From positions 1,488,001 to 1,552,000 of the forward strand of contig NZ_CP095412.1 of NCBI RefSeq assembly GCF_023016265.1: a stretch of 64,000 nt of DNA. Direction: 5' to 3'. Made by a program: the position numbers and the translations under genes. Below, piece after piece: positions 4,894-56,285 of this stretch. The notes beneath the pieces are model-generated. The model saw only the letters and a list, made by a program, of their open reading frames with translations. It did not search any database and was not told where the DNA came from. Positions within the stretch are counted from its first letter, which is position 1, and every line of letters begins with the position of its first letter. This stretch comes from Blastococcus sp. PRF04-17 (GTDB taxonomy: Bacteria > Actinomycetota > Actinomycetes > Mycobacteriales > Geodermatophilaceae).

Positions 4894-5846
4894 CCTCGTC
4901 GCATGCCGGGTCCCAGCATCTGCTGGTCACCCTCCTCGGGACGTACTTCTACGGCCAGCAGAAGCCCATTCCTTCGGCGTTCCTGGTGCGGCTCCTCGGC
5001 GAGTTCGGCGTGACCGAGGTCGGCGCCCGCAACGGGCTCAGCCGCGTGACGAAGCGTGGGCTCCTGGAGGTCTCCCGACCCGGCCGGAGCACCTACTACC
5101 GACTCAGCGACGAGGCTCACGCTCACCACGCGGAGCGGCTGAGCGAGATCTTGACCTTCGGCCTGGACCAGGAAACGTGGGACGGGACGTGGACGGTGGC
5201 GATGTTCTCGGTCGCCGAGCGGGACCGGGCACAGCGCCACCTTGCCCGGCACCGGCTGGGCACGATGCGGTTCGCGATGTTCTACGACGGCGTCTGGATT
5301 CGGCCCGGGTCCGTGGCCGAGCAGACCGTCATCGCGCTCAAGGATTTGGACCTGCAGAAGGCGACGGTGCTCAGCGGGGCGAGTGTCGACGGTGTCCACG
5401 GCCCGGGCGACCCGGTCCAGGCATTCGCGCTGGACGAGCTCGAGCTGCGGTATCGAACGTTCGTCGATTCCCTGGCGGTGCTGCAGAGCCGTATCGAGGC
5501 CGGCGAGATCGGGGCGGCAGAGGCGCTCCTGCAGCGCACCACCGTGATGCACCAGTGGCGCTACTTCCCTGACAACGATCCCCTCTTGCCGAGCGAACTC
5601 CTGCCGGAGACCTGGCCGCTCACTGACGCGCACGCCGCCTTCGTGAGCGTCTACGACGGCCTCGGGGAACTCGCGGATCTGCGTCTCCGACACCTGCTCG
5701 CCGACTACGCCCCCGAGCTTGCCGCGGACGTCAGATCGCTCACCAGCGACGAGGTCCGCGCCATGAACATCCCGCCCCGGCGCCTTGGATCACTGACCGG
5801 CATGGACCTGGCGGACAGCCCACTCGATCCGGACGACGAGGACTGA
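4890..5846 (+). CDS. PaaX family transcriptional regulator
   Basis: A 318-residue protein with the PaaX layout: an N-terminal winged helix (about residues 10-85, including TEVGARNGLSRVTKRGLLEV and GRSTYYRLSDEA), a central ferredoxin-like domain starting at DGTWTVAMFSV, and the C-terminal helical domain with the usual FPDNDPLLPSELLPETWP segment. Family members repress aromatic-acid catabolism operons and are released by an acyl-CoA ligand (phenylacetyl-CoA for PaaX itself). It is coupled to the P450 by an ATGA overlap and is followed 2 nt later by the CapA-like gene, so it probably controls its own operon and perhaps the divergent transporter. The inducer is not known. Confidence 0.88.
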   Translation: MTSSHAGSQHLLVTLLGTYFYGQQKPIPSAFLVRLLGEFGVTEVGARNGLSRVTKRGLLEVSRPGRSTYYRLSDEAHAHHAERLSEILTFGLDQETWDGTWTVAMFSVAERDRAQRHLARHRLGTMRFAMFYDGVWIRPGSVAEQTVIALKDLDLQKATVLSGASVDGVHGPGDPVQAFALDELELRYRTFVDSLAVLQSRIEAGEIGAAEALLQRTTVMHQWRYFPDNDPLLPSELLPETWPLTDAHAAFVSVYDGLGELADLRLRHLLADYAPELAADVRSLTSDEVRAMNIPPRRLGSLTGMDLADSPLDPDDED

Positions 5847-38000: not shown

Positions 38001-39853
38001 TAGCGCTCGTTGTCCCGCAGCGCCTCCTCCGGGGCGATGCCGCTGGGCACCACCACCGGCAGCACGATGTAGCCGAGCTCCTTGCCGGGCGCCTTGCGCA
38101 TCACCCGGCCGACGGATTGCACGACGTCCACCTGCGAGCCACGCGGAGTGAGGAACAGGACGGCGTCCAGCGCCGGCACGTCGACGCCTTCGGACAGGCA
38201 CCGGGCATTGGTGAGCACCCGACACACGCCGTCCTGCGGGGTCTCCTTCAGCCAGGACAGGTGGGTGTTGCGCTCGTGCACCCCCATCGTGCCGTCGACG
38301 TGCGCCGCTTGAATGCGGAGTCGCGGCCGGTCCTCGGGCGCGTCGATCTGCGCCCGGTCGGCGAGGTCGGGGAACGCCGCAGCCGCCGCCTTGGACGCTT
38401 TGATGTGCTGGGCGAAGGCCACCGCCGTCCGCATCGGTGTCCGGTCGACGACCGCACCATCGCCGATGGTCGCCGCCGGTCCGAAGTTCTTCGCCAGACC
38501 GTTCCAGCAGCCGATCAGCTTCGCCGCCTGGTCGAGCGGGATCTCTCCGGAGTTGGCCATGGCCTGCTGGAAGTTCTCCGCGACGTACTTCTCGTCGACC
38601 GCCAGAACCAGCACCTTGTAGTCGGTGAGCAGGTCGGCCTCGACCGCCTGCCCGAAGCCGAGCCTGTGCAGCTCGGGGCCAAAGACCTCGGCGTCGCCCA
38701 TGTCGGCCAGCACCGCGTCGACATCGGTCGCCTTGCGCTTGACCTCCTCTCCGAACACCCGCGGGGTCGCGGTCATGTAGAGCCGCTTGGCCGCCTTCAG
38801 GGCGTCGGCGTCGTGCACCCGGACGAACGTCGACTCGTCCCCCGCGGCCAGAGTGACGCCGGTGGTGCGGTGCGCCTCGTCGCAGACGACCAGGTCGAAG
38901 CTCGGCAGGCCCCGCTCCTGGGCCTGGAGCACCACGTCGATCGACTGGTAGGTGGAGAAGACCACGCGCATGCGCCCGGGGGCCTGCTCGCCTTTCTCGA
39001 AACGGGTCAGCAGGGTCTGCGGGTCGGTCGACGCCGGTTCGGTCAGGTCGATCGGGAGCTGGGCGGCGTCGTCGGACGGCGTGCGCCGTCCGACCCGGAC
39101 GTCGGAGCAGACCGCGTACGGCGCGATGTCCACCTCGGCGTTGGCCATCCACTCCCGCAGGCTCTGGCTCAGCAGCTGGATGCTCGGCACCAGGAACAGC
39201 ACGGTGCCGCCCGCGCCGACCAGGTCCTCGGCGATCCGCAGGCTGGTGAACGTCTTCCCGGTGCCGCAGGCCATCACCAGCTGGCCCCGGTCGTGCTCGG
39301 CGAGCCCGGCGCGGACGTCATCCAGCGCCTTCTGCTGGTGTGGGCGCAGCGCCTTCTTGCCCGTCGGGACGACGATCTCCGGCGTCGTCCAGGAGAACTG
39401 GTCCCAGTCGATGGCCGCGTCGGCGAGGTACCCGATGTCAATGCGCTGGGCCACTCCCCCGGCCAGCGTCTCCTCGGCATTGGTCGACCACGCAGCGGCG
39501 GTGTCGAACACGATGCGCCGGGTGAAGCGGGCATGCGCGGAGGCGCTGATGAATGAGTCGATGTCTGCCTTGGCGACCGTGCGACCCGGTGCGTAGAACT
39601 TGCACTGGATGGCGGTGAGCCCACCGTCGTCGGCATTCGCCGCGACCAGGTCGATGCCGGTGTCCGGCCGGCCGGCGCGCTCGGGCCAGTCCGACCACAG
39701 CCAGACGTCGGAGAACCGCGACTTCCACTCGGGGTCGGAGGTCAGGTACGCCCTGATCAGCCGCTCGAACTTGCTGCCCTTGTCCCGCTCGTCCAGCGCT
39801 TCGCTGCGAAGCCGGTCCAGAACAGCGTGGATGGTCCCCGTCACGGTTCGCAT
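35072..39853 (-). CDS. Single-chain restriction-modification enzyme, type ISP architecture
   Basis: About 1593 residues. Domains in order: Mrr-like PD-(D/E)xK nuclease (Asp68 in DTGIDLVA, Q83-C-K85), superfamily 2 helicase with Walker A ACGTGKT (about 195-201), DEAH (325-328), STYQS and a late QSVGRVMR motif VI, a helical coupler, an N6-adenine methylase with DPFTGTGTF (about 894) and NPPY (about 1000), and a C-terminal target-recognition region. Type ISP enzymes (LlaGI, LlaBIII) methylate one strand, translocate and cut foreign DNA. Length and order match. The start is placed at 39853 because upstream residues are low-complexity; a longer ATG/GTG form to 39985 is possible. Divergent from the SIR2-Argonaute genes. 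Confidence 0.9.
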   Translation of the reverse strand: MRTVTGTIHAVLDRLRSEALDERDKGSKFERLIRAYLTSDPEWKSRFSDVWLWSDWPERAGRPDTGIDLVAANADDGGLTAIQCKFYAPGRTVAKADIDSFISASAHARFTRRIVFDTAAAWSTNAEETLAGGVAQRIDIGYLADAAIDWDQFSWTTPEIVVPTGKKALRPHQQKALDDVRAGLAEHDRGQLVMACGTGKTFTSLRIAEDLVGAGGTVLFLVPSIQLLSQSLREWMANAEVDIAPYAVCSDVRVGRRTPSDDAAQLPIDLTEPASTDPQTLLTRFEKGEQAPGRMRVVFSTYQSIDVVLQAQERGLPSFDLVVCDEAHRTTGVTLAAGDESTFVRVHDADALKAAKRLYMTATPRVFGEEVKRKATDVDAVLADMGDAEVFGPELHRLGFGQAVEADLLTDYKVLVLAVDEKYVAENFQQAMANSGEIPLDQAAKLIGCWNGLAKNFGPAATIGDGAVVDRTPMRTAVAFAQHIKASKAAAAAFPDLADRAQIDAPEDRPRLRIQAAHVDGTMGVHERNTHLSWLKETPQDGVCRVLTNARCLSEGVDVPALDAVLFLTPRGSQVDVVQSVGRVMRKAPGKELGYIVLPVVVPSGIAPEEALRDNERYKVVWQVLQALRSHDDRFHAMVNQIELNKRKPDTIEIVTVTGPTGGDGVTVPDPDQPTRKTTEQLLMEFPADEFRDAMYARIVAKVGERRYWETWAKDIADIAAAHVTRIKGLLAMPGPAADEFEHFVGGLRGNLNDSITDDAAIDMLAQHLITRPVFEALFAHSSFLAGNPVARTMENMLAVLDAHAVGAENETLEGFYDTVRKRVAGVDNAAGKQRVLVELYDKFFANAFPKTVAKLGIVYTPVEIVDFILRSADEVLRTEFGQGLTDEGVHVLDPFTGTGTFLVRLLQSGLIEPQDLARKYANELHANEILLLAYYIAAANIETTYEDLEGTPTPFPGLVLTDSFQSWEDADQQDIDVIPENNERLERQKRLPIQVIVGNPPYSAGQDSANDDNANEKYPTLDAAIRDSYAARSTATNKNSLYDSYIRAIKWATLRIKERGIVAFVTNGGFLDSNTADGMRQTLAEEFSAIHVFNLRGNQRTAGEQSRREGGKVFGGGSRATVAITLLVKKSDAAGPATIHYTDVGDYLTREQKLARVAEARSLGDLASAAITPNQHGDWLHQRAEDFGAFMPIENIFAIQSGGLKTNRDAWVYNFGREAVETSVRKLLANYNDGLVSGSRTIDSTMIAWSGSLEAAHARGQQLRFSSQASVNAIYRPFTKVVCYRDDALIERRYRIPNLFPDRHATNVGVYQVGSGSAVPFSVLALDVVPDLHVTGAGSGGQFFARWRYEKVDEFGMFDVHGDGEVVGGYRRIDNITDEALAAFTAAYPGEPISKDDIFDYVYGLLHSPEYRERYAADLKKMLPRILFAEDFRAFADAGKQLTVLHLGYETVKLYPLDGLDASGPGGDADYGFFAVRDKKMAFGKPSAEQRAAGLRHDRSVIQYNDRITLRGVPEEAYQYTLGSRSAIEWIIDRYWVKTDKASGIVNDPNDWSREVGEPRYILDLLARIVTVSMETIRVVDSLPPLGVRRDG

Positions 39854-40135
39854 CTTGCCCGATGGTGCGTCTGGAGAGGGTTGCCCCGTCCGGACGAGTC
39901 GGCCCGGCGTAGCGCGCGAGATCGACTGGGCCCTCGTCGACCGACGTCGGCCTACGGTCGATGACCACCTCTCCCTGGCGGACACGGCAGTGCTCTGTAG
40001 CCGAGTCGGTCAACGTGCGCCGCACCAGTGCAAGCCAGCGGCGACCAGCACCCACCGTCATGGGCCTGCGCGTCGCCGCGATCTGTCACGGACCGTTCGT
40101 AAGCTGTTCGCAGTACCCGATCGAACGGAGCACGG

Positions 40136-42043
40136 TTGGCGACGGCGGACGAAGAAGGCGTGACCACAGACATCGCTGCCGCCGGAGTGCGGATCCACTC
40201 CCTGACTGAGTTCACGACGATCTGGGCGCTTCAACGAGCCAAGTTCGGCTGGCTGCTTGGCGCTGGCGTCAGCGCCTCCGCCGGGGTACCGCTCGCCAGC
40301 TCTATCCGCGATCGGCTCCTCTTCGACCGCTACGCGGCCAAGCACAACCTCGTCCGCCAGAACCTCGATCAGACCGACCCCGCCCAGGTCGAGCGGATCC
40401 ATGCCTACTTCGACGGCAGCAACGGCATGCCGCCGTTGGGCAGTGACAGCGACTACTCGGCGGCGTTCGATCTCTGCCTGCCCGACCCAAGCGCGCGCAA
40501 GGCCCTCCTGCAAGACCTCATCGAGGACGTTAGGCCCGGCTTCGGACAGCGAGTCTTTGGCGGCTTGGTCATCTCCGGCGCATGCGATCTTGCGATCACG
40601 ACGAACTTCGATCGGCTCATCGAGCGGGGCGTGCACGAGGCGCAACGGGCCGGCACGGACCTACGCCTGCCCTTGCAACGGGAGCTACACGTTGCCGGGC
40701 TCGACTCCACCGCCAGAGCGGCCGTCGCCATCCAGGAACGCCAGTGGCCCCTCATCGTGAAACTCCACGGAGACTTCCGCGAGAAGCGGCTGATGAACAC
40801 CGAGTCCGAACTTCAACAGCAGGACGTGGCGCTCCGTCAGTTCGTCGCCGACGTCAGCCGTCAATTCGGGCTGGCAGTCAGCGGCTACAGCGGCCGAGAT
40901 CGCTCGGTGATGCAGATGCTTGAGCAGACCGTCCGCCGCCCCGGGGCTTGGCCCTACGGCATCTGGTGGCTGATCCGACCGAACAGCCCGATCCCCGACT
41001 CGGTACGCGGCCTGCTGACTCTCGCGGCACGCCAGGGTGTGGCCGCTAATCTCGTGTCGGCTGCCAGCTTCGACGAGACCATGTCGGCCCTGGCGCGACA
41101 GGTCGTCGTCGATGAACCGATGCGCAACTACTTCGATGGTCTCCATCCGAAGCCGCGGACAACGCCGGCTGCCTTACCCCGGCACTCACGAGACTGGCCA
41201 GTGCTGCGCTTCAACGCCCTGCCTGTCGCTGAGGCCAGCGTCGAGGTGACCCGGATCGCGGTTCCAGCGGGCTGGCGCCGGCGCATGGTGCGCAACGCGA
41301 TGACGCCTCGCGCAGACTGGCCGGTGGTGGTCAACGGGCCCGGCGAAGTGCTCTGCCTGGGTGAGCCCGAAGCGGCGCTCCGTCTACTCGGAGACGCTGC
41401 CAGGCTCAACTCATTGCCCCATCCCGGACCGGCGACGACGTCCCAGATCGATCTGCTGGCCGATGACGCCCCAGCACACCACCAACTCGTTCTTCTCCAA
41501 GTGGTTGCTCATGCGCTGCAGCAGTCAATGCCGCTACGGATGAGAACGGGGAAGGACGGCAATCCGGAGCTGATCGTCACCGATCCGGCCGCTGAGGAGG
41601 CAGCCGGGCAGGCCGACGCTCGCACTCGACTTCGTCTCGTCTATGACGGCCCACTGACGGGCTACCTGCCGGCAAAGTACGGGCAAGTTGCTCCAAACAG
41701 GAATCGACGATGGGCGGAAGAGGTGCATCTGTCGTTAGACCGTCGCGCGGGTCGCCATTGGGTCCTGTTTACTCCTAGCACCTGGATTCAACCCCTCCCA
41801 GGCGAGGTCGAGTCGGACGCGCTGCCAAGCAGGGACGCGGATCCTGCGGACTCGTGGCGGGTCCAACGGTGGGCGGAGCGTCGCTTCAATGAGAAGTGGG
41901 CAGACATGCTTCGAGCTTGGACCACGTTGTTGGCGCCCGAGGACCCGACTTTGCTCACTGTCCCGGCAGCGACTCCGGGAGGGGTGCCGACGGCCCGGGT
42001 CCTTCTCGGACGCACCAATGCCTACAGTCGGCCGACGTGGTGA
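40136..42043 (+). CDS. SIR2-APAZ protein of a short-Argonaute defence system
   Basis: A 635-residue effector. An N-terminal SIR2 domain: NAD-binding GAGVSASAGVPLASSI (about residue 41), TTNFDRLIERG (about 154) and the catalytic-histidine segment VKLHGDF (about 208), then SGYSGRD. The C-terminal half (about 330-635) lacks enzyme motifs and fits APAZ, the PAZ-like partner domain of short Argonautes. The next gene is a short Argonaute starting inside the stop (GTGA). Established for this family (SPARSA): guide-directed sensing of invading DNA by the complex triggers NAD hydrolysis and cell death. The TTG start at 40136 has ACGGAGCACGG before it; a GTG at 40160 is an alternative. Confidence 0.88.
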   Translation: MATADEEGVTTDIAAAGVRIHSLTEFTTIWALQRAKFGWLLGAGVSASAGVPLASSIRDRLLFDRYAAKHNLVRQNLDQTDPAQVERIHAYFDGSNGMPPLGSDSDYSAAFDLCLPDPSARKALLQDLIEDVRPGFGQRVFGGLVISGACDLAITTNFDRLIERGVHEAQRAGTDLRLPLQRELHVAGLDSTARAAVAIQERQWPLIVKLHGDFREKRLMNTESELQQQDVALRQFVADVSRQFGLAVSGYSGRDRSVMQMLEQTVRRPGAWPYGIWWLIRPNSPIPDSVRGLLTLAARQGVAANLVSAASFDETMSALARQVVVDEPMRNYFDGLHPKPRTTPAALPRHSRDWPVLRFNALPVAEASVEVTRIAVPAGWRRRMVRNAMTPRADWPVVVNGPGEVLCLGEPEAALRLLGDAARLNSLPHPGPATTSQIDLLADDAPAHHQLVLLQVVAHALQQSMPLRMRTGKDGNPELIVTDPAAEEAAGQADARTRLRLVYDGPLTGYLPAKYGQVAPNRNRRWAEEVHLSLDRRAGRHWVLFTPSTWIQPLPGEVESDALPSRDADPADSWRVQRWAERRFNEKWADMLRAWTTLLAPEDPTLLTVPAATPGGVPTARVLLGRTNAYSRPTW

Positions 42044-43521
42044 CCGCGCAGATGACGCCGGCGCAACCGACATCTTCCGCGTTGGCTGCGTTCGACCGCA
42101 TCAGCGACAAGCCTCTTGTTTTCGGCAGCTCGCAGGATCAGCAACGCGGTCAACACGTGAACCCGCTCGCCGGCTTGCTGCAGCACGGGCCCTACGCGCC
42201 GTTTCCCATGGGAGACACCATCCGAGTCGCCACCATCGCCGCCGCTGATCAACAGCAGAAGCTGTTCGACTTCCTCGGCCGGCTCCATCAGGGCGCTCGG
42301 GCAACTGACCGAATCCGGTACGTCCCTGACTTCCCTGGCTTCGAGACCGCCTTTCGGGTTCGGCTGCAAGGGGTCACAGACCCGCACTGCCACCTCGGCC
42401 TGGCGCCTGATACCGCAGAAGAGGGCACTTCCGACCCACACTCACGTATCGTCCAAGCCCTCGTCGCAGCCATCTATGCTTTGCGAGACCGACGTGACAA
42501 GTGGGACGTCGTCGCCATTCTCTTGCCGTCACGATGGGAACACTTGCGCAAGTCGTTGGACGGCCAATTCGACCTTCATGATTCCATCAAGGCGGCAGTC
42601 GCTCCGTTAGGGATCCCTGTCCAGTTCCTCTGGGAGAATTCTGCGCTCGCCACAACTCAGTGGTGTTCCACCGCGTGGCGCCTCTCGCTTGCGTTCTTCG
42701 CGAAGGCCGGCGGCATCCCCTGGCGGATTAACCCTACGACCAGCACCACGACCGCTTACGTCGGCCTACACTACGCCATCCGAGGCGGCACCCGCAATGA
42801 GTTCGTCACGTGCTGCTCCCAAGTGTTCGACGCGCAAGGCGGAGGTCTGGAATTCGTCGCCTACAACCTCGGGCCGGGAGACCGCACCCGCAGGAACCCG
42901 CACCTAACTCGCGAAGAGATGCGGGTCGTGATGAGTCGCACAGCTGACCTTTATCGACATCGGCACGGTGGCGCCATGCCACGCCGCTTCGTCATCCACA
43001 AGGCAACCCCGTGGCGCGAAGAAGAGGTCGAAGGGGTCTTCGACGCGTGGGGTGCCGCGCACACCGTGGAGTGCATCACCCTGCAGTCGTCACGCTGGCG
43101 CGGAGTCGAGCTCACCGGCCGAGGAAACGCCGAAACGGGACCGAAGGCGGCCACAAGGGCTATCCAGCGAGGCACACTGCAACAATTCGACGAAAGCAGT
43201 GGCCTGCTCTGGACCCGAGGGCCATCGCGGATCGGCAACGACGGGCAATTTTACAGTCCCGATGGAAAGAGCCTCCCGCGCCCGATCGCCTTCACTCGCT
43301 ACACCGGCGATGGCGATCTGAACCTTCTCGCCGCGGACATTCTGGCTCTGACAAAGCTGGATTGGAACAATGACAGCCCGTACAACTCTCTGCCCGTAAC
43401 CTTAGGCTACGCTCAGAAGCTGGCCGAGGTTATATCCAACGTTCCGAGGCTTGACGACAACGTTTACCGGCTCTTCCCAGATGAGGGTGTAGGTCGGCCG
43501 GGCGCGTCGGTCCGCAGATAG
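42040..43521 (+). CDS. Short prokaryotic Argonaute (MID-PIWI), C-terminus altered by IS insertion
   Basis: A 493-residue short Argonaute, the guide-binding half of the SIR2-APAZ/Ago pair; GTGA overlap with the effector gene. Recognisable: WDVVAILLPSRWE, the MID segment GIPVQFLWENS, TAWRLSLAFFAKAGGIPWRI, the PIWI strand TTAYVGLHYAIRGG (no catalytic Asp) and RRFVIHKATPW. The DEDX slicer residues are missing, as is normal for short forms. The gene should end within two or three codons after DDNVYR; instead LFPDEGVGRPGASVRR follows, encoded by the ISL3-type terminal repeat that begins at 43469. So the native C-terminus is lost and replaced by about 16 foreign residues. Confidence 0.88.
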   Translation: MTAQMTPAQPTSSALAAFDRISDKPLVFGSSQDQQRGQHVNPLAGLLQHGPYAPFPMGDTIRVATIAAADQQQKLFDFLGRLHQGARATDRIRYVPDFPGFETAFRVRLQGVTDPHCHLGLAPDTAEEGTSDPHSRIVQALVAAIYALRDRRDKWDVVAILLPSRWEHLRKSLDGQFDLHDSIKAAVAPLGIPVQFLWENSALATTQWCSTAWRLSLAFFAKAGGIPWRINPTTSTTTAYVGLHYAIRGGTRNEFVTCCSQVFDAQGGGLEFVAYNLGPGDRTRRNPHLTREEMRVVMSRTADLYRHRHGGAMPRRFVIHKATPWREEEVEGVFDAWGAAHTVECITLQSSRWRGVELTGRGNAETGPKAATRAIQRGTLQQFDESSGLLWTRGPSRIGNDGQFYSPDGKSLPRPIAFTRYTGDGDLNLLAADILALTKLDWNNDSPYNSLPVTLGYAQKLAEVISNVPRLDDNVYRLFPDEGVGRPGASVRR

Positions 43522-45746: not shown

Positions 45747-47184
45747 GGGTCTTCTCAGATGACGGTGTAGGTCGGCCGGGCGCGTCGGTCCGCAGATAGA
45801 CGTCGAGGTCTCCCGACGACGGAGGTTCCTACGCCATCCATCCGAAAGACCTCGACGTGTCCGACGCTACCCCGCCGGCCGGCTTCGGCCGCCCTGACCT
45901 GACCGCCTTCGCTCGACTCGACGGCCTCGGTCTGAGCGTGACCGGACAACGACTTGAACCGGATCGTGCGGTCCTCGCGTGCCGCGTGGTGGAACCAGAT
46001 CAGTGGTGCCGACGGTGCGGCAGCGAAGGCGCTGCTCGTGACACCGTGATCCGGCGGTTGGCCCACGAGCCGCTGGGCTGGCGACCGACCGTGCTGGAAG
46101 TTGTAGTGCGCCGCTACCGCTGTGCCGACTGCGGACACGTGTGGCGCCAAGACACCAGCGCCGCGGCGGAGCCACGCGCGAAGCTCTCGCGCACCGGGCT
46201 GCGGTGGGCGCTGGAAGGGATCGTGGTCGCACACCTCACCGTCGCCCGTGTCGCCGAGGGACTCGGGGTCGCGTGGGACACCGCCAACAACGCGGTCCTG
46301 GCTGAAGGCAAGCGGCTGCTGATCAACGACCCCACGCGGTTTGAGGGCGTGAAGGTCATTGGCGTCGATGAGCACGTCTGGCGCCACACCAGGCGTGGCG
46401 ACAAGTACGTCACCGTGATCATCGACCTCACCCCGGTCCGCGATGGCGCCGCCCAGCAAGGCTGCTGGACATGGTCGAGGGCCGGTCGAAGGCGGCGTTC
46501 AAGACCTGGCTCGCCGACCGCGACGACGCCTTCCGTGACGCGGTCGAGGTGGCCGCGATGGACGGCTTCACCGGGTTCAAGACCGCCGCTGCAGAGGAGA
46601 TCCCGGACGCGGTCACGGTGATGGATCCCTTCCACGTCGTGCGCCTGGCCGGTGACGCCCTCGACAGGTGCCGGCGCCGGGTCCAACTCGCGATCCACGG
46701 GCACCGTGGGTTCAGGGACGACCCGCTCTACAAGTCGCGGCGCACGCTGCACACCGGCGCGGACCTGCTCACCGACAAGCAGAGCGATAGGCTACGCGCG
46801 CTGTTCGTTGATGACGCTCACGTCGAGGTCGAGGCGACCTGGGGTGTCTACCAGCGCATGATCGCCGCCTATCGCCACGAGGACCGGCAACGTGGCCGCG
46901 AGCTCATGGAGAAGCTGATCACCGACCTCAGCGCCGGCGTCCCCAAGGTGCTCACCGAGCTCACCACCCTGGGCCGGACCCTGAAGAAGCGAGCCGCTGA
47001 CGTGCTCGCCTACTTCGAACGACCCGGCACCAGCAACGGGCCGACCGAGGCGCTCAACGGACGGCTCGAACACCTGCGCGGCTCCGCACTCGGGTTCCGC
47101 AACCTGACCAACTACATCGCCCGAAGCCTGCTCGAGACCGGCGGCTTCAGACCCCAACTCCTACACCCCCGATTGGGATGAGCC
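45747..47184 (+). mobile_element. ISL3-family insertion sequence, nearly complete
   Basis: About 1.44 kb. The left terminal repeat begins gggtcttctcagatgacgg at 45747 and the right one ends ccgattgggatgagcc at 47184; they are imperfect inverted repeats of about 25 bp. It encodes one transposase with a frameshift. No matching 8-bp target duplication flanks it (cgtttcag versus agtttggc), so the element or its surroundings were rearranged after insertion. A fragment of the same family sits at 43469. Confidence 0.82.
45857..47181 (+). pseudogene. ISL3-family transposase, frameshifted
   Basis: DDE transposase. First part (to about 46449): N-terminal zinc-finger CRRCGSEG...YRCADCGHVW, then helix-turn-helix GIVVAHLTVARVAEGLGVAWDT and VIGVDEHVW with the first catalytic Asp. 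One base is lost near 46449 (GGCGCCGCCCAG). The remaining part continues in the next frame as ARLLDMVEGRSKAAFKTWL, with AMDGFTGF (second Asp) and NGPTEALNGRLEHL (Glu), ending at 47181. Both parts are otherwise full length. GTG start at 45857. Confidence 0.85.
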
Positions 47185-48059: not shown

Positions 48060-51000
48060 TCAGCCGGCCCTGTTAATCCACTGTCGGCGGAAGAGGATCT
48101 CGGCGGTTCTGGGTGGCAGGTCTTCCTCGACCTCAGCGTCGTGGTTGGCCAGGATTCGGGCGACGTAGGCGTCCGCCTCAGCCCGGTTGTCCTGCGCGTC
48201 GCAGGCGGCGACCAGGTCGAGCAGCGGCACGTCCTCGTAGCTGCCGGCTTTCAGTGCCACGTGAGCGGCGGCTGCGGCGAGCTCGGGATCGCCGGCGGCG
48301 AGGTGGTGCGTCGCGACGGTGTGCGCGACGTCGACGATCATGGCGGCGTACTCGTGGTCCAGCCGGGAGTTCTCCTCGACCAGCCAGCTGTAGCCGCCGG
48401 GCGCACCCTGCCGAGACGGGGGCAGTTCGAACGGCCGCCCGTTCACCAAGTCGAGAGCGGCCTGCAGGTCGGCTATCCCGTCGACACCGCGGGCCAGCCC
48501 GCGGACTCGCAGTCGACGGAACAGCTCGGCGTCGATGAGGACGTCGTCGATGCGGTAGCGGCCGACCCCGCCGGCCGTGACCCCGGACGGGAGGTAGTCC
48601 GCACCGGTCGCCGGGTTGGTGCCCAGCCAGGCGCGCACGATCGAGATCGACTGCCGCACCTTGGTCTTGCCGACGACATCGGGCTCGTTGGGCCAGATTG
48701 CCGTGGCGTATCGCTCGCTGGTCACACCGCCGGGCCGGGTGGCCAGGTAGGCGACGATCTCGGTGTAGAACTGCCGCCGCGGGTTGCGCTCGGGCAGCGT
48801 GCCCTGCGCCCGTACTTTGACCGGGCCGAGCAGGGTCAACTTCGGCCGTGGGCAGGACGGGTCGGCCCAGTCGGCTAGGTCGGCGTCCAGGGCAGGGTCG
48901 GCGGCCTCGACCTGGTCGCGGATGTGCTCGTCGGTGGCCGGAGCCAGTGCCTGCAGGTCCTGCTCGGTGGTCGCGGCGTGGTCCAGGTAGGTCTGCGCGG
49001 ACAGCGGTAGCACCGAGTTGGTCATCCAGGCCGCGGCGCCTGCCTGGTGGACCACCGGCACGTCGTCCGCCTCGGCTGGCGCAGGCGGCTGCCGCTGGCC
49101 GGCGTGGGACGGGTCGACTCGGAGGCCGCCGCAGGCATCGGCGTGCTCGTCCCAGGATGCATCGCCGCGAGAGGGTGGGACCGGGCGGTCGTCGGTGACG
49201 GCAGCCAGCGCGAGCACCTGGGCCAGCTGCGCGGCCTCGTCGGCCGGGATCTGCTGCGCGATCAGCTCGACTCCCAGGGCGGGGATCCTGAGCATGCCGG
49301 TCTCGTCGACAGTCAGCTGCCAGCGGGCGGCCTCCGCGTGGTCTTGGTCGTCGATGAGCACCAACGCGGCGGCGCTGCGGGCGCGCTGCTGCTCCATGGC
49401 GATCATCAGCCGTTCCAGCCCGGCGCTGTCCTTGGCGACGTCCGGGGCGATGAGCAGCACGTACGGCGCCCACGCGTCGCCGGCCACGTCGCGCAACCGG
49501 CCCGACAGCACGTCGACGTCGGCGATATGCATGGCCTCGGTGACCGACTCGAGCCGGCCGTCGAGCGCAGCGATCGCCTTCTCGACGTTGTCCGTGTAGG
49601 TCAGCCGGTCGGGGTTGACCTGGGCCAGCTCCTTGCCGAAGCCGACCAGGGTCACCTGCAGCATCTCCGACCAGGTGTTGTGCGCCAACTCGGCAGCGAG
49701 GAATCGGGCCAGGTTCAGGCAGCGTTCGGCGTCCCCGGACAGGGACAGGGTCGCGACCCGTTCCAGGTCGAGCAGCCAGTGCTCGCCCTCGGCGGTGTAG
49801 CCCACCGATGTGAGCATGGGGAACGGTGCGAAGAAGTACGCCCGCTGGTGCTCGTCATAGGTCAGCGGGTCATCGCGCCGGATTGACCAGCGGGTGCCGG
49901 CCGGGTTCACCGTCCACGGCTCCGGGGCCTCCGAGGCCGGCTCGGTGAGTACCAGGGTCAGGACGTCGTCGGTCATGCAGGCCGCCACCACGTCGGGCAG
50001 ACGAGCGCCGTCGACCTTCGCCAGTGCCTGCACCAGGGCGCGCAGCGCATGGTCCAGCCAGGTGACGTCGGCACTGCCTACGCTGCCGACCTCCTGCAGT
50101 GCTCGTTCGACGTGGAACAGCTCCGGTGGAGTGCTGCCGATCGTGCGGCCGGGACGTCGCTGCCGGAACTGCCTGCGACGGTAGCGCAGCAGCGCGGTCA
50201 GTGAGGCTCCGGCCAGCAGCAGGCCGCCGCCGGCGGCGAAGGCGATCAGCGGCAGCTCCGAGGTGCTATCCGTCGAGGTCTCGTCGCGCCTCGCGGGCGA
50301 CGGCTCGGCGCTGTTCGGTGCAGCCGTGGGAGGCGAGTTCGGGGCGTTGGTGGCCGGACCGGGCCCAGCCGGAGGCGGTGCATTGGTGCCTGGCGTGGTG
50401 GGGTCAGCTGGAGGGGCGCTGCTCGGGGCTGGCGCTGAGGGCGGTGCCGGCTCGGTCGTGGGCGGTGCCGGCTCGGCTGCAGGAGGCGCCGGTGCGCTGG
50501 GCGCAGGCGTCGCGGGACTGGTCGGGTCGGGAATGCTCAGCGTCCAGCCCGGTCGGATCAGCGACGGGTCGGTGAAGGTGGCACCTCCGGGCTGGCTGCG
50601 TCCCCGGTTGAACTCCCAGGCTTGTCGCCAGTTGTGACCGCTGCCGGTGATCTCCTCGGTGAGGTCCCACAGGGTGTCGCCGGGTTCCACCGTGACGTCC
50701 TCGACAGTCATCGCGGTGTTCGGGGCTGGGCCCGTCGGCGGCAGGCTGACCGCGTCGGGCGGCAGGACCAGCACCGTGCCCGGGAAGATTTCGTTGTCCG
50801 GACCGACCGCGGTCGGGTTGAGCTTGGCGATCTCCGGATACCGCAGCGGGTCCCCGAGATGCCGCTCGGCCAGCGCCCACAGGGTGTCCCGGCGCTGCAC
50901 CTGGTAGGTCGTGGTCGCGGCCGGAGGCGCGTGCTCGTCCGGCATCGAGTACGCGACCGGTGTCTGCCCTGTGACGAGCACGCTGGCGTACTGCACCGAG

Positions 51001-51431
51001 CCCGGGACTGCAGTGGAGGTGGCCGCAACCGGCAGCGGCGGCGCCGTTGCGGTGGATGCGGGGGCGCCGCCCGCCAGTGGAGCGACGGTGAAGCCGACCG
51101 CCACGGCGGTGACCAGGGCGGCTGCTGGCCGCTGGAAGATTCCCAGCCCGGGGAGGGCCGGAACCGGCCGTGCGCGGGCGAACGCCACGATCTCCGCCAC
51201 TGTCGCGGCGGTGAACAGTGCCCAGCACACCCACACGCCGGCCGCGAGAACAAGTCCAGCGAGCTGTCCGTTGTCGCGGGACGTCAGGACGGCGCCGACC
51301 TCGTCCAGCGACGGCAGGCTGTGCGGCACTAGATGCAGCACCGCCATCAGCACCGGTACGCCGACGACGACGGCGAGCAGCGCCACGAGGGCACCCGTGG
51401 CCTTGAGCAGGCGGGCGGCGTGGCCGGTCAC
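48060..51431 (-). CDS. Membrane LysM-BTAD protein of the Tad locus
   Basis: A 1123-residue multi-domain protein. Three membrane helices at about 10-35, 55-85 and 100-125. Two LysM peptidoglycan-binding repeats (about 175-225, YQVQRRDTLWALAERHLGDPLRYPEI..., and about 247-305, VEPGDTLWDLTEEI). A long Pro/Ala/Thr-rich linker (305-385), then another helix (about 393-415). A large middle region (430-780) without a recognised motif. A C-terminal winged helix plus BTAD module as in SARP regulators (about 865-1110, YLATRPGGVTSERYATAIWPN...). So a cell-wall sensor fused to a regulator-type domain. The GTG overlaps the tadE stop (GTGA), so it is the last gene of the Tad operon. Confidence 0.88.
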   Translation of the reverse strand: MTGHAARLLKATGALVALLAVVVGVPVLMAVLHLVPHSLPSLDEVGAVLTSRDNGQLAGLVLAAGVWVCWALFTAATVAEIVAFARARPVPALPGLGIFQRPAAALVTAVAVGFTVAPLAGGAPASTATAPPLPVAATSTAVPGSVQYASVLVTGQTPVAYSMPDEHAPPAATTTYQVQRRDTLWALAERHLGDPLRYPEIAKLNPTAVGPDNEIFPGTVLVLPPDAVSLPPTGPAPNTAMTVEDVTVEPGDTLWDLTEEITGSGHNWRQAWEFNRGRSQPGGATFTDPSLIRPGWTLSIPDPTSPATPAPSAPAPPAAEPAPPTTEPAPPSAPAPSSAPPADPTTPGTNAPPPAGPGPATNAPNSPPTAAPNSAEPSPARRDETSTDSTSELPLIAFAAGGGLLLAGASLTALLRYRRRQFRQRRPGRTIGSTPPELFHVERALQEVGSVGSADVTWLDHALRALVQALAKVDGARLPDVVAACMTDDVLTLVLTEPASEAPEPWTVNPAGTRWSIRRDDPLTYDEHQRAYFFAPFPMLTSVGYTAEGEHWLLDLERVATLSLSGDAERCLNLARFLAAELAHNTWSEMLQVTLVGFGKELAQVNPDRLTYTDNVEKAIAALDGRLESVTEAMHIADVDVLSGRLRDVAGDAWAPYVLLIAPDVAKDSAGLERLMIAMEQQRARSAAALVLIDDQDHAEAARWQLTVDETGMLRIPALGVELIAQQIPADEAAQLAQVLALAAVTDDRPVPPSRGDASWDEHADACGGLRVDPSHAGQRQPPAPAEADDVPVVHQAGAAAWMTNSVLPLSAQTYLDHAATTEQDLQALAPATDEHIRDQVEAADPALDADLADWADPSCPRPKLTLLGPVKVRAQGTLPERNPRRQFYTEIVAYLATRPGGVTSERYATAIWPNEPDVVGKTKVRQSISIVRAWLGTNPATGADYLPSGVTAGGVGRYRIDDVLIDAELFRRLRVRGLARGVDGIADLQAALDLVNGRPFELPPSRQGAPGGYSWLVEENSRLDHEYAAMIVDVAHTVATHHLAAGDPELAAAAAHVALKAGSYEDVPLLDLVAACDAQDNRAEADAYVARILANHDAEVEEDLPPRTAEILFRRQWINRAG

Positions 51432-51853
51432 GACAGGCCCTCACCGCTGGTGACCCCGACCAGCAGCTGGGCGGTGTGCACGCGGGTCTGGCTGACCGGG
51501 ATGCCGAGCAGAGGTGTCGAGTCGGTGACGGTCACGCTGACCTCGACGATGCCGGGGCCGGTGACGGTGACCGTGCCGGTCGCACCGGCCTGGTCGAGAT
51601 AGGAGCGGGCCGCGGTCGCCGCCAACTGCGCGTCGGTGCTGCCGCCGGTGGGAACCGGGCCGATGGCGATGCTGGCCGCGCGAGCTGCCTCAGCCGAGTA
51701 CGTGTCGGCGCGGTTGGCGGCCTTGATCGCGGTCCCGGCGTCGACGAGTGCGGTGACCAGGACGCTGGTGATGAGCACGATGAAGCAGAACAGCACGGCC
51801 ACCGAACCGCGGTCGTCCCGGAGCCGGGCGCTGGCGTTCGAGTGGCGTGTCAC
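51428..51853 (-). CDS. TadE-like pilus assembly protein
   Basis: A 141-residue pseudopilin-like protein: short basic N-terminus, RGSVAVLFCFIVLITSVLVTALVDAG (TadE-type RGS-hydrophobic helix at about 15-40), then a soluble beta-rich tail. Minor pilins of this kind help assemble Flp pili. The GTG at 51853 overlaps the stop of the preceding, interrupted gene (TCGTGA), and its own stop overlaps the LysM-BTAD start. A longer open frame upstream runs into the foreign insert and is not the real start. Confidence 0.82.
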   Translation of the reverse strand: MTRHSNASARLRDDRGSVAVLFCFIVLITSVLVTALVDAGTAIKAANRADTYSAEAARAASIAIGPVPTGGSTDAQLAATAARSYLDQAGATGTVTVTGPGIVEVSVTVTDSTPLLGIPVSQTRVHTAQLLVGVTSGEGLS

Positions 51854-52717
51854 GACAGATCCCGGGCTGGGTCGAGCGGGCTGGTGGCGCTGTCGTGCAA
51901 CGTCCGGGAACCGAATGGAATGGACAGATCGAATGGACACGGATGGATTGATGCTGGAGAGTCGAGTGCGGAATCATGGAGTGTTGATGCTGGACTCATG
52001 CCGAGTGTTCATCGAATGCAAGGTGTGTTGAATGGAATGCAAAGTTTGAATGGAAACAGAAGGGCCCGAGTCGCATCCAGGCATCAAATGGATGGAATGC
52101 TGGAACGGGTTTTGTTCAAGCGAGCATGGAAGTCATCGAATGGAATGGAGTCTGGAATGCAGTGGAATGGTCTTCATCATCGAGTTTCCAGTCATCAAAG
52201 GGTCAAATGGATGTCATCGAGTCTCATGCAAGGTTCAAAAAGCCAGTGCCAGCAAACGGCAGAAGTGTTCTTTTTTTTCACAAATGAGCCACACTTGATT
52301 TTGCAGCTGTAGCAAGAAGCCATGGCACTGCTGGCTGTTTACAGCAGTAGAATGCACCTGAGACCTGTGGTTTGCAGCCTGACTGGCTGTCACAGAGCGA
52401 TGTTTGCGCGAGTTTGTCGAACCAGAGTTCCAAGTCCAGGGCGCCCCAGCGGCAGCAGCCCAGCCCTCAGCCCTCAGAAGCCCAGCCTCCTCTGCAGGGA
52501 TGCAGCAGCATGGAAGTCCTGATGCACGGCCATGCATGAACACGTCCTACAGCATGACGATGATGTTGTTTATCAAAAAACAGACGATGACAAAACAGCG
52601 ATCCAGCAACCCACTTGAGCAGCTCCCGCCCCGCCTGCGCCACCAGTTGGGGGGAGCCCGGCGCGATGGACCGCGCGGCGAGGATGCCGCACGGTTGGGA
52701 GTACGCGCCTCGAGCAT
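51850..52717 (-). pseudogene. Second tadE-like gene, interrupted by foreign DNA
   Basis: The ATG at 52717, 17 nt past the pilin stop, begins MLEARTPNRAASSPRGPSRR...WWRRRGGS, the usual basic lead and RGS just before the TadE membrane helix. The frame breaks at 52622 exactly there. At the other side of the foreign block, the frame LHDSATSPLDPARDLS-stop (51905 to 51850) ends in the GTGA overlap that is typical of this operon. The two pieces fit the ends of one gene whose middle (membrane helix and most of the tail) is absent. Confidence 0.65.
51906..52621. other. About 0.7 kb of eukaryote-like DNA inside the Tad operon
   Basis: Base use changes abruptly at both ends: much lower G+C, scarce CpG, abundant TG/CA, a run of eight T (52269-52276) and A6 runs. 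The left half is built from degenerate GAATGG/TCATC(G) units (gaatggaatggac, tcatcgaatggaatgga, tcatcatcgagt), reminiscent of GGAAT-type satellite DNA. The right half is CAGCAG/CTGCAG-rich. No bacterial gene is readable. The source could be an animal or dinoflagellate. It is either a chimeric join or a foreign insertion. Confidence 0.8.
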
Positions 52718-52733: not shown

Positions 52734-52970
52734 CTACTGGAACAGCGACGTCTTGCTGGCCACGAAGGCGATGGCCGCGGCACTGACCGCGCCGCCCAGC
52801 GCGATGGCCAGGATGACCATGAACGCCTTCTCCGAGGAGTCCGAGCCTCGGTCGTCAGCGACCTGTTCGGCGCGCAGCCAGGCCAGAACCGACAGGGACA
52901 CGACAGACAGGGCGATGACGCACTGCGCCACGACGGCCTCCGCACCGCGGCGGATGGTGGGCTGGAACAT
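52734..52970 (-). CDS. Flp-type pilin / DUF4244-like small membrane protein
   Basis: 78 residues: MFQPTIRRGAEAVVAQCVIALSVVSLSVLAWLRAEQVADDRGSDSSEKAFMVILAIALGGAVSAAAIAFVASKTSLFQ (given here in halves about a short polar centre). The ending FVASKTSLF and position after TadC identify it as the small pilin-like gene of actinobacterial Tad loci. It has two hydrophobic stretches. The ATG at 52970 follows GGGAGGTTTCCA. Confidence 0.75.
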   Translation of the reverse strand: MFQPTIRRGAEAVVAQCVIALSVVSLSVLAWLRAEQVADDRGSDSSEKAFMVILAIALGGAVSAAAIAFVASKTSLFQ

Positions 52971-52996: not shown

Positions 52997-53896
52997 TCAG
53001 GACGAGATCCCGAACATGCGGAGCATGAAGGGGACGAGCACGAACAGGGTCAGTCCGGTGACCAGCAGCGCCAGCGGGCGCGACATCCGCTCGCTGACCT
53101 GGTTGGCCTCGGTACGGGCGTCGGACAGCTCGGCGTGCCGAAGCGTGCGGGCGCTGGCCAGCAGGGTGTTGTAGACCGAGGCGCCGTCGGCAGCCACTGC
53201 CGCGATGTCGGCAAGGTTCCGCAGCTCGGCGACCTGTAGCTCCTCGCCGAGGTCTCGCAGCTCCCCCCACGGTTTGCGGCCGGACAGCGCTGCGCGGCGG
53301 ATGGCCCGGCGCATGCGGACGAATGGCATGCTGCCCGAGATTTCGGCGGCCTCCTCCAGTGCCTGCTCCACCGAGCCCCGCGCCCGACGTTCACCGGCCA
53401 CCAGGGTGAGGAAGGACTCCAGGTTGCTCCGGAACTCCACCCGTGCCTTGTCCGCCGCCTCACGGGCCTCGGCCGAGGGCAGGAACCACCCGACGACGGC
53501 GATCCCCAGCCCGACCGCGGCGGGCAGCACGAAGGGCACCGGAACGTCGAGCAGCAGGAACACCAGGCCGAACAGCGACGGAGCGAGCAAGCCGGCGAGC
53601 GCCAGGGTCAGCTTGCGGGCCGCGAGCTGAGCGGGGGTCCAGCCGATGATTGCCAGGTCGGCGTCCGAGACGCCCAGATGCCCGTCCAACGCCCGCGCCA
53701 CCGGCACCGGCAGCCAGTCCCACCGGTCTCGGGTGGACGTCGTCACCGCCGGCGCCGTTCGGACGGTCGGCTCGGCCGCCAACTGCTCCAGTGCGGCCGC
53801 CAGTGACGGCGGCGCCGGACGCAGTGCACGGACCGCGAGGACGAGGCCGCCCGCGATGAGCATCCCGGCGAGAGTGGCCGTCTGCAGCCCGGTCAC
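52997..53896 (-). CDS. tadC: TadC-like type II secretion system F family protein
   Basis: A 299-residue inner-membrane platform protein of the Tad pilus (GspF fold). N-terminal helix TATLAGMLIAGGLVLAVRAL, central helices LTLALAGLLAPSLFGLVFLLLDV, the T2SSF cytoplasmic domain (FRSNLESFLTLVAGERRARGSVEQALEEAAEISG...) and a C-terminal helix PLALLVTGLTLFVLVPFML. The GTG overlaps the TadB stop (GTGA). It works with TadB to anchor the extension ATPase. Confidence 0.86.
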   Translation of the reverse strand: MTGLQTATLAGMLIAGGLVLAVRALRPAPPSLAAALEQLAAEPTVRTAPAVTTSTRDRWDWLPVPVARALDGHLGVSDADLAIIGWTPAQLAARKLTLALAGLLAPSLFGLVFLLLDVPVPFVLPAAVGLGIAVVGWFLPSAEAREAADKARVEFRSNLESFLTLVAGERRARGSVEQALEEAAEISGSMPFVRMRRAIRRAALSGRKPWGELRDLGEELQVAELRNLADIAAVAADGASVYNTLLASARTLRHAELSDARTEANQVSERMSRPLALLVTGLTLFVLVPFMLRMFGISS

Positions 53897-54759
53897 CGGT
53901 GCACCGGAGCCGGGTCGGGATCGAAGAGCACCCGCGGTGGCTTGACCGGATCGGACAACCGGCGCATCCACCGCAGCGACGTCGCGAAGATCGCCACCAC
54001 TGCCAGCAGGGCGATCTGCCCGAACGGCGTCGAGTAGCCCGACATAAAGGTCCGGGCGAACAGCGTCATCCCGACCACCAGCACCAGGGTCACCACGACG
54101 ATGGTGCGCATGTTCGACCGCGGCTTGGCGCGTTCGGCCTCCACCTCACGGACCATGCGGGAGCGGTCGTCGAGGTCGGCGGCCAGTGCGGTGAGCACTT
54201 CGGCGAGCCCCGGCCCGCCGTTGCGCTCCCGCAGGATGAGCACCATGGCGATCTTCTCGGCGGCCGGGTCGTCGATCTCGCGGGCGAACTGGCGCAGCGC
54301 CGTCTCGGTGCCCTGTGGCCCCATCCTGGTCACCAGGTTGGTGACCGCCGGGGCGATCGGCTCCGGCACCGAGCTCAGGGAGCGACGCAGCGCATCGCGC
54401 GTCGACCCGGCAGCCCCTGAGCTGATGAGGTCGGCCAGCCGCCGCGTCCAGTCCGCCAGCGCCTCGGACGTGGCGATCAGTCGCTTGGCCGCCTTGCCGC
54501 CGCCGAGCACCTTCGGGATGAACACGACGCCGCCGGCAGCGCCCAGCGCCGCGGCCGGCCAGCCGGTGACCAGCAAGACGAGCACGCCGGCGGCCAACGC
54601 ACCGAGGATCAGTGGAGTGGCTCCTCGCCGCGAGGACGAGCGCACCGACGGCGAGCGCTTCGGCAGGAAGGAGACGCCGCGCACCGCCCCGACGACGCCG
54701 ACCAGGCCGGCCGAGAGCAGCAGCCCGGCCAGGGTCAGTAGCAGCCCACCGGCGGTCAC
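53893..54759 (-). CDS. tadB: TadB-like type II secretion system F family protein
   Basis: A 288-residue membrane platform protein: N-terminal helices (LLLTLAGLLLSAGLVGVVGAV, LILGALAAGVLVLLVTGW), cytoplasmic T2SSF domain (SEALADWTRRLADLISSGAAGSTRDALRRS...; ALRQFAREIDDPAAEKIAMVLIL), and two C-terminal helices (TIVVVTLVLVVGMTLFARTF, IALLAVVAIFATSL). GTG start overlapping the TadA stop (GTGA). With TadC it forms the pilus assembly platform. Confidence 0.86.
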   Translation of the reverse strand: MTAGGLLLTLAGLLLSAGLVGVVGAVRGVSFLPKRSPSVRSSSRRGATPLILGALAAGVLVLLVTGWPAAALGAAGGVVFIPKVLGGGKAAKRLIATSEALADWTRRLADLISSGAAGSTRDALRRSLSSVPEPIAPAVTNLVTRMGPQGTETALRQFAREIDDPAAEKIAMVLILRERNGGPGLAEVLTALAADLDDRSRMVREVEAERAKPRSNMRTIVVVTLVLVVGMTLFARTFMSGYSTPFGQIALLAVVAIFATSLRWMRRLSDPVKPPRVLFDPDPAPVHR

Positions 54760-56285
54760 GACGCACGCTCGCGGCGGCGGGGACCGGTGTGCCAGTCGGA
54801 GGCGCCCGGGTGCAGCCAGTTCAGGTCGAAGCCGACCGCGGTGAGCCGTTCGGCCAGTGACTCGCTGAGCATCCCCGGCCCGGTGGCCTGGGCGCGCCCG
54901 TCCTGGGCGCGCGGCGCGAAGATCGGCTTGAGGTCCGGCCGACCGGAGTCGCCGATCGGGCCGAGTTCATAGATGCCCGAGACGTACCGGGCGTAGTCCC
55001 GGTCGCGATTCACGTGCACGACCAGATCCAGGGCGGCCAGCGAGCGCAGGACCAGCTCCGGGGACGGGGCCGGATGCGCCCTCAGCGCGTTGATGAGCAC
55101 CTTGTCGAACACGCCGGCGGCTGACGGCGAATGGATCGTGCACATGACCGACGAGATGCCGCTGGTCGCGGCCTCCAGCAGATAGGTGACGTAGGCGCCG
55201 CGGACCTCCCCCACCAGCACCCAGGTCGGGGACGCGCGCAGCGCCAGGTGCAGCGCATCCCCCATGTCGAACCCGCCTCGGCCTTCGGCGTTGGGCAGCC
55301 GGGACTCGAACGGTCGGCACACCGCGTGCCGCCGGACCAGCTGCCGGCGGTCGGGATCCCACCGAGGAAGGTGCAGACCCAGCTCCCGCTCGTCCTCCAC
55401 GGTGATGACCACGTTGTTCCACGGAATCGCGTTGCCCAGCGCGCGCAGCAGCGTTGTCTTGCCAACTCCCGGCGCGCCGCTGACCAGCGGAGATGCGCCG
55501 GTGAGGATCGCGGCATGCAGGAAGGCGCGCACCGGCGAGTCGACCATGTTCATCGCGTGCAGGTCGTCCAGGCTCGGATCACTGAACCGGTGCACTCGGA
55601 TCACCCCGGCCGGGCGCGGCAGCACGTCCATAGCCGCCTGCAGCCGGGCGCCCAGCTCGGTCACGCCCTTCAGCCGCACGTTCAGGATGGGACTGGCCGA
55701 GGAGAACTCGCGGCTGGTCTGACCGTCGTCCGACCTTGAACCGATCGACCGCAGCAGCTGCTCGAGCTCCTCGTCGCTGGAGGCGATCGCCGGCCCGGGC
55801 ACCAGTTGGCCGCTGGCCATCCGCAGCATCGTCGGCTCGCAGCCCTCGAAGTGGATGTCCTCCACGTCATCCCGGGCCATCAGCGGAGCCAGTCGCCCCA
55901 GCCCGTCCAGCTCGGCTAGCACGGCCGCGAAGATTCTGTCCTCGGTGGTCACCGCCGGCGCCGAACGGCCGCGGTTGGCCTCGTGCAGCAGCCACTGGTC
56001 GTACTCGTCGCGGATCAACTTCCGGGTCAGCTCGCGCCGCGGGCCCGGGGCGTAGTTCCTGTCCTCCGCGGTCAACCGGGTCGATACCCGGTCGCGCAGC
56101 TCCACCACGACGCGGTACTCGGTGCTGGTGAGCTCCCTGGTATCGGCTGGCGTCGCGTCGACAGGCGCGTCCACCGCAGCCAGCGGCTCTGGCGGCGGCA
56201 GCGGCGGACGCTCGCGGGCGGGCCGCGACAAATCGGCGGCGGCAGGCACTTCCAGCCGCGGAGAGGCGGTGTCCTCGTTCCTCAT
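54756..56285 (-). CDS. tadA: TadA/CpaF-type secretion ATPase
   Basis: A 509-residue hexameric ATPase driving pilus extension. N-terminal Pro/Ala-rich lead (1-50), N-terminal domain (about 100-250, EDIHFEGCEPTMLRMASGQL), Walker A SGAPGVGKTTLLRAL (about residue 268), Asp box VITVEDERELGLHLPRW, Walker B-like PTWVLVGEVRGAYVTYLLEAATSG, and the His box MCTIHSPSAAGVF. The ATG overlaps the CpaE-like gene's stop. Length and motifs are typical. Confidence 0.92.
   Translation of the reverse strand: MRNEDTASPRLEVPAAADLSRPARERPPLPPPEPLAAVDAPVDATPADTRELTSTEYRVVVELRDRVSTRLTAEDRNYAPGPRRELTRKLIRDEYDQWLLHEANRGRSAPAVTTEDRIFAAVLAELDGLGRLAPLMARDDVEDIHFEGCEPTMLRMASGQLVPGPAIASSDEELEQLLRSIGSRSDDGQTSREFSSASPILNVRLKGVTELGARLQAAMDVLPRPAGVIRVHRFSDPSLDDLHAMNMVDSPVRAFLHAAILTGASPLVSGAPGVGKTTLLRALGNAIPWNNVVITVEDERELGLHLPRWDPDRRQLVRRHAVCRPFESRLPNAEGRGGFDMGDALHLALRASPTWVLVGEVRGAYVTYLLEAATSGISSVMCTIHSPSAAGVFDKVLINALRAHPAPSPELVLRSLAALDLVVHVNRDRDYARYVSGIYELGPIGDSGRPDLKPIFAPRAQDGRAQATGPGMLSESLAERLTAVGFDLNWLHPGASDWHTGPRRRERAS

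What the first reader, a model, noticed from the sequence alone, without database searches (positions are those of the whole stretch)
51906..52621. Eukaryote-like 0.7 kb replaces the middle of a tadE gene
Sharp change in composition at both ends, satellite-like GAATGG units, T8 run, no bacterial genes. The flanks are the two ends of one gene in frame with the operon's GTGA coupling. Replacement rather than insertion suggests a chimeric or mis-filled assembly from a host or co-culture; if real, it is a striking inter-domain insertion.
Basis: partly seen in the sequence, partly recalled or inferred. Interest (0 to 1): 0.8.

Follow-up and report, generated by a model that had tools for sequence, protein, structure and literature searches.

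The report
Eukaryote-like DNA replacing two pilus genes
In one Blastococcus-type bacterial genome, about 0.7 kb of foreign, eukaryote-like, non-coding DNA stands where the close relatives examined have parts of two neighbouring pilus genes; it is either an assembly error or a rare accidental capture of foreign DNA, and only the sequencing reads or a PCR can tell which.

Summary
A block at 51914 to about 52620 (50% GC; window 67.5%; 18 of 20 sampled genome stretches 70.5-74.7%) is sharply bounded, rich in GAATGG-type units and without recognisable genes. It holds the only T8 run in the 4.59 Mb single-contig genome; CG is depleted and CA and TG are both enriched as in no other stretch read. The flanks are not two ends of one tadE gene: they are the start of one tadE gene and the tail of the next. 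All 17 named relative loci (16 genomes) and all 8 unnamed loci examined (4 shared) have three consecutive Tad genes here; this genome keeps only the third whole. The block was not found in 396 other genomes of the order, 72,556 plasmids or 50,697 phages; one 21-mer found nothing in GTDB species genomes. It is eukaryote-like by composition only; no donor is identified. Real or not is undecided: assembly artefact about 0.5; capture of foreign DNA during end-joining repair about 0.38 (Ku, LigD and ComEC are present). A reported human L1 fragment in Neisseria gonorrhoeae shows such captures can occur. Reads across both junctions, or one PCR, would settle it.

The parts
51914..52618 (.). Foreign block: GC 0.50, GAATGG-type units mostly in 51914-52240, T8 at 52271-52278, CG-poor and CA/TG-rich, no recognised gene
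52619..52655 (.). GC-rich junction piece that aligns with none of 11 relatives and whose 27-nt core occurs nowhere else in the genome (<=3 mismatches); may be part of the foreign fragment or a second filler. Right limit uncertain (52645-52668)
52656..52717 (-). Remnant of gene 1 (tadE, PF07811 in relatives): about 16-24 N-terminal codons, with small deletions against relatives next to the junction
51850..51913 (-). Remnant of gene 2 (second tadE-like gene): about 21 C-terminal codons with stop, GTGA overlap with gene 3
51428..51853 (-). Gene 3, 141 aa, intact, 94% identical to L041. No Pfam match itself at E<=0.001; its relative in L041 reaches PF13400 (Tad) 20.9 bits, under the 22.3 cut-off, hence 'tadG-like'
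52734..52970 (-). Small protein in the place of the Flp pilin, judged by position, size and a hydrophobic stretch seen by eye; no Pfam or NCBIfam match
52997..53971 (-). TadC-like (PF00482 T2SSF, 27.8 bits), intact
53893..54759 (-). TadB-like by position only; no NCBIfam match, not run against Pfam
54756..56285 (-). TadA/CpaF-like ATPase (PF00437, 63.5 bits), intact
48060..51431 (-). 1123-aa LysM protein downstream, intact and conserved in relatives

Best explanation
The block is a piece of foreign, eukaryote-type non-coding DNA standing in place of most of tadE and nearly all of the next tadE-like gene in a Tad-pilus operon. Shown: it is foreign in composition, it is absent from every relative locus examined, and the relatives' genes are missing. 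Inferred: most likely it is an assembly fault. A stretch with few or no good bacterial reads was closed with sequence from co-sequenced eukaryotic DNA (host, co-culture, neighbouring library or environmental sample), leaving the spacing almost unchanged (864 bp from gene-1 start to gene-3 start, against 928 in relative L041). On this reading the living organism carries intact genes here and the block does nothing. The margin over real capture is small.
For: Own genome only among 397 genomes of the order. All three Tad genes matched in 17 of 17 named loci (16 genomes) and 8 of 8 unnamed loci, 4 of them shared. CG depletion, CA/TG enrichment and satellite-like units with no window alike in 398 kb of sampled own genome, and no other T8. 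Length conserved within about 7%, as a size-guided gap closure would give. The right junction is untidy: unalignable GC-rich bases and small deletions. Completeness is 95.89%, whereas 26 of the 36 family genomes listed reach 98% or more and the other 10 are in 190-520 contigs.
Against: The genome is one contig with no N in the 462 kb read. A chimeric read that leaves the chromosome and returns colinearly 0.8 kb further on is hard to make. In 13.0 kb of own DNA compared with relatives' open frames, the island part (7.0 kb) has no split frame; in a chromosomal part (6.1 kb) 3 of the 11 frames with hits were split, none clearly a frameshift in a real gene, so poor consensus is not shown. No overlap explaining a mis-join was seen. 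The length match is weak evidence on its own.
Confidence: 0.5

Rival explanations
1. Real capture. A double-strand break in the tad operon lost about 790 bp and was sealed by Ku/LigD end joining with a stray eukaryotic DNA fragment, taken up from the surroundings, as filler. The two minor-pilin genes were destroyed. The change is tolerated because the genome has another tad locus or because the pilus is dispensable.
For: Deletion plus unrelated filler plus an extra short GC-rich piece at one junction is the expected scar of end joining (general knowledge). Ku at G000:C1:374927-375469 and a LigD polymerase domain at 377456 lie within 2 kb; ComEC is present; a second tad region lies near 2.65 Mb. 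Single contig without N in what was read. Precedent: a 685-bp human L1 stretch in some N. gonorrhoeae strains (passage of PMC3848584).
Against: Ku, LigD and ComEC are not specific to this event. No donor is known, so junction microhomology cannot be tested. Only one genome carries it. No second such block in the about 10% of the genome read.
Confidence: 0.38
2. The block is bacterial, phage or other mobile DNA of unusual composition, or a fast-decaying local sequence, not eukaryotic.
For: No donor is identified. Host TA is also low (mean 0.40; 278 of 4,473 windows at or below about 0.12). A model trained on the left half scores the right half only weakly (+5.1 nats), so the two halves are not clearly one kind of DNA.
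Against: No blastn match in 72,556 plasmid or 50,697 phage records or in 396 other genomes of the order. One 21-mer has no match in GTDB species genomes. No family match in the frames searched, no codon-position bias. No terminal repeats, target-site duplication or transposase match.
Confidence: 0.12

Closest known systems
Human L1 fragment in Neisseria gonorrhoeae (Anderson and Seifert 2011, not held; seen only as cited in passages of PMC3848584)
   Same: About 0.7 kb (685 bp) of eukaryotic repetitive DNA inside a bacterial genome
   Different: There 98-100% similar to human L1 and reported in some strains; here one genome, donor unknown, replacement of parts of two genes, not verified by reads
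Chimeric or contaminated bacterial genome assemblies (general knowledge)
   Same: Eukaryote-like stretch with sharp edges in one assembly and in no relative examined
   Different: Contaminants usually form separate contigs or contig ends; this one is internal and colinear on both sides
Tad competence/Flp pilus operons of Micrococcus luteus (PMC4322843, passages read)
   Same: [quoted passage not shown] There, mutants of the tad clusters, including those in TadE, TadE2 and TadF, lacked surface Flp complexes and transformation (tadB only lowered transformation; the authors could not exclude polar effects)
   Different: No function has been tested in Blastococcus, and here two minor-pilin genes are broken in the assembly

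Membership tests
Tad pilus operon (host locus) | TadA-type ATPase, T2SSF membrane proteins and tadE-type minor pilins in one operon | tested here: met
   PF00437 and PF00482 in the window; in relative L041 gene 1 PF07811 43.1 bits, gene 2 only 13.8 (cut-off 22.9), gene 3 PF13400 20.9 (cut-off 22.3). Met for the relatives; in the window itself genes 1 and 2 are broken
Eukaryote-to-bacterium DNA transfer | Block matches a eukaryotic genome | not testable with these tools
   No eukaryote collection is held; composition only
Eukaryote-to-bacterium DNA transfer | Block absent from related bacteria at the orthologous site | tested here: met
   17 of 17 named loci (16 genomes) and 8 of 8 unnamed loci have the Tad genes there instead; 396 other genomes of the order lack the block
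Eukaryote-to-bacterium DNA transfer | Reads span both junctions at normal depth | not testable with these tools
   No reads available
Assembly chimera | Depth break, unsupported junctions or Ns at the edges | tested here: inconclusive
   No Ns; depth not available; right edge untidy
Insertion sequence or transposon | Terminal repeats, target-site duplication or transposase gene | tested here: not met
   No direct repeat of 10 nt or more with copies at the two edges; the only inverted pair spanning the block is 15 nt, 87%, in the GC-rich flanks; no transposase family in the frames searched
   No sequence match possible. One dinoflagellate-like stretch (L056, 2101-2800, 48% GC) has TA 0.56 and CA 1.21, unlike the block's 0.12 and 1.63; one partly coding stretch is not a fair control

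The most novel reading that the evidence does not exclude
A real inter-domain event: a bacterium of a stone- and desert-dwelling family sealed a chromosome break with 0.7 kb of non-coding eukaryotic DNA by Ku/LigD end joining, and in doing so destroyed two minor-pilin genes of a Tad pilus, a machine that in another actinobacterium is needed for DNA uptake. It would be a natural scar showing that eukaryotic repeat DNA can enter such genomes without homology or selection.
Probability: 0.35. Interest if true: 0.7.

Novelty: not a real feature. Interest (0 to 1): 0.35.

Why it matters
If an artefact, a single-contig genome carries a silent error that breaks two genes and could be copied into databases as inter-domain transfer or as a fused protein. 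If real, it would join the few captures of eukaryotic DNA by bacteria known to me, in an actinobacterium with Ku and LigD, and the route could be tested directly.

Tried and rejected
A single tadE gene with its middle replaced: rejected, because relatives show two genes. tblastn of relative gene 1 runs 52 residues into the window at 46% identity (52717-52556) and gene 2 covers residues 121-154 at 71% (51939-51853), a little past the edges I give; I take these ends as chance extension into the block. A mobile element: no terminal repeats at the edges, no transposase match, no second copy in the own genome. A filler copied from elsewhere in the genome for the GC-rich junction piece: a 27-nt core with <=3 mismatches occurs only here. 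A small-word BLAST of that piece gave one 21-nt 90% match in L052 (E 0.024), taken as chance; I cut that printed list at 4,000 characters, so part of it was not seen. Other foreign blocks in the genome: none as marked in 398 kb sampled plus the window; milder GC dips in L067 (two) and L071 (one) were not followed up. The W12 search was uninformative, since the block has no such run either. Low TA as a mark: rejected as evidence by itself, because about 6% of own-genome windows are as low. Donor by exact words: none in genome contigs (one 21-mer) or viral contigs (three words). A 17-mer hit 7 viral contigs; the matches do not extend beyond 17-25 nt and the contigs' dinucleotides differ: chance-like. 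TA depletion as a dinoflagellate mark: a review passage says 5-hydroxymethyluracil prefers TA and TC there (PMC6723414 passages), but no passage seen gives dinoflagellate TA depletion, and the one control stretch was milder; a lead only. Poor consensus quality: of 22 relatives' open frames queried 18 had hits and 3 were split, all in the chromosomal region. One split frame overlaps, on the other strand, a long frame that aligns in one piece. In a second, one of the two pieces is weak (60 residues, 53% identity). The third lies where another relative's frame aligns in one piece. None is a clear frameshift, but they were not resolved. Papers: listings; passages only; no whole paper was read. No listing seen named a Blastococcus genome with such a block, but the strain was never identified, so this says nothing on absence from print.

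Full report
Setting. The window is G000:C1:1488001-1552000 of a genome of 4,585,415 bases in one contig, completeness 95.89%, contamination 0.31%. The 17 named relative loci come from 16 genomes: 12 loci of Blastococcus (B. aggregatus twice), two of Modestobacter, one of Geodermatophilus, one record labelled Bacillus sp. AZ43 and one Frankiales MAG. The genome is therefore a Blastococcus-like member of the Geodermatophilaceae; its own name is not given.

The block. Composition changes abruptly at 51913 and near 52620. The block has GC 0.504, and TA 0.12, CG 0.57, CA 1.66 and TG 1.64 of expected. Among 4,473 windows of 705 bp from 462 kb of this genome (398 kb sampled plus the window), only two have both CA and TG at or above 1.5, and both overlap the block; TA at or below about 0.12 is, however, seen in 278 of them, so low TA alone means little. 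The left half (51914-52240) holds most of the GAATGG-type units, far above expectation. T8 or A8 occurs nowhere else in the genome. GAATGGAATGG with up to one mismatch occurs six times genome-wide, three of them in the block (reversed-pattern control: one). A Markov model trained on the right half scores the left half clearly (+35.1 nats) but the reverse is weak (+5.1), so the two halves may differ in kind.

What stands there in relatives. After tadA, tadB, tadC and a small pilin-like gene come three overlapping genes. In L041 these are 156 aa (PF07811, 43.1 bits), 154 aa (weak PF07811, under the cut-off) and 141 aa (PF13400 just under the cut-off). tblastn found all three in 17 of 17 named loci and 8 of 8 unnamed loci, some matches being partial (distant relatives, or cut by the end of the locus); four unnamed loci are the same contigs as named ones by length. 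Unnamed loci L011-L031, with TadC only 28-39% identical, were not examined for this. In the window gene 3 is whole, gene 2 keeps only its tail and gene 1 only its start. Homology to relatives stops at 51912-51913 in 16 of 17 named loci (L048 at 51894) and resumes at 52646-52668 in 12 and at 52734 in five (L048-L052). Gene-1 start to gene-3 start is 864 bp here and 928 bp in L041. Next to the right junction there are a few small deletions against relatives and about 25-40 GC-rich bases of unknown origin. These could be the end of the foreign fragment itself; on the minus strand one frame of that piece runs on into the block, which would fit a GC-rich exon edge, but this is speculation from reading the sequence.

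Searches for a source. No blastn match in plasmids or phages; own genome only among 397 genomes drawn from the order; no exact match of one 21-mer in GTDB species genomes or of three words in viral contigs; seven short chance-like hits for a 17-mer. The tools note that records of the window's own genome may be left out. No eukaryote collection was available. 'Eukaryote-like' therefore rests on CG depletion with CA/TG enrichment, satellite-like units, the T run and the lack of recognised genes.

Real or artefact. For artefact: one genome only, nearly conserved length, untidy right edge, completeness below that of 26 of 36 family genomes listed. For real: one contig without N in 462 kb read, intact neighbouring operon genes, no clear frameshift in 13.0 kb compared although three split frames in the chromosomal part were left unresolved, the difficulty of making a colinear double junction by mis-assembly, and Ku within 2 kb of a LigD polymerase domain, ComEC, and a second tad locus. 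In M. luteus both tad clusters are needed for Flp pili and transformation, polar effects not excluded (passages of PMC4322843); on the real reading the captured DNA would have disabled a system of that type. Reads would decide at once.

Noticed in passing
L056 (IMG/VR contig IMGVR_UViG_3300045993_001077), 1936-2913: A 22%-GC contig listed as viral carries two exact copies of the dinoflagellate spliced-leader 21-mer (motif recalled) 147 bp apart, beside a 254-aa open frame in a 48%-GC stretch: possibly a dinoflagellate gene captured by a large DNA virus, or a viral stretch in a dinoflagellate genome.
   Followed up: partly
G000:C1, about 1713820-1713888 (L096, about 3320-3388): A GC-rich repeat of about 55-65 bp recurs at 85-94% identity at other places in at least 9 of the 10 same-genus genomes (own included) in a match list that was cut short.
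   Followed up: no
L055, around 8176: Blastococcus sp. TF02-8 lacks the stretch matching window 53167-55169 (part of TadC, all of TadB, part of TadA), while its three tadE/G-type genes match in full.
   Followed up: no
L041 and L043: The 17-kb tad regions of a record named 'Bacillus sp. AZ43' (UNVERIFIED_ORG; same genus as the window, judged by equal contig length) and of Geodermatophilus sp. LHW52908 are 97.3% identical, the three tadE/G-type proteins 99-100%: a mislabelled record, and perhaps recent exchange or a misnamed strain.
   Followed up: partly
window 35072-43521: A 1637-aa type ISP restriction-modification enzyme next to a 635-aa SIR2-like protein and a 541-aa open frame without Pfam match: may be a defence cluster.
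   Followed up: no
window 46471-47181: An ISL3-type transposase gene (PF01610) lies near the downstream end of the tad operon; the window is lower in GC (0.675) than 19 of 20 sampled stretches of the genome.
   Followed up: no
window 3438-5846: An 802-aa open frame has PaaX domains at residues 495-747 and no Pfam match before them: over-extended start or a fusion.
   Followed up: no
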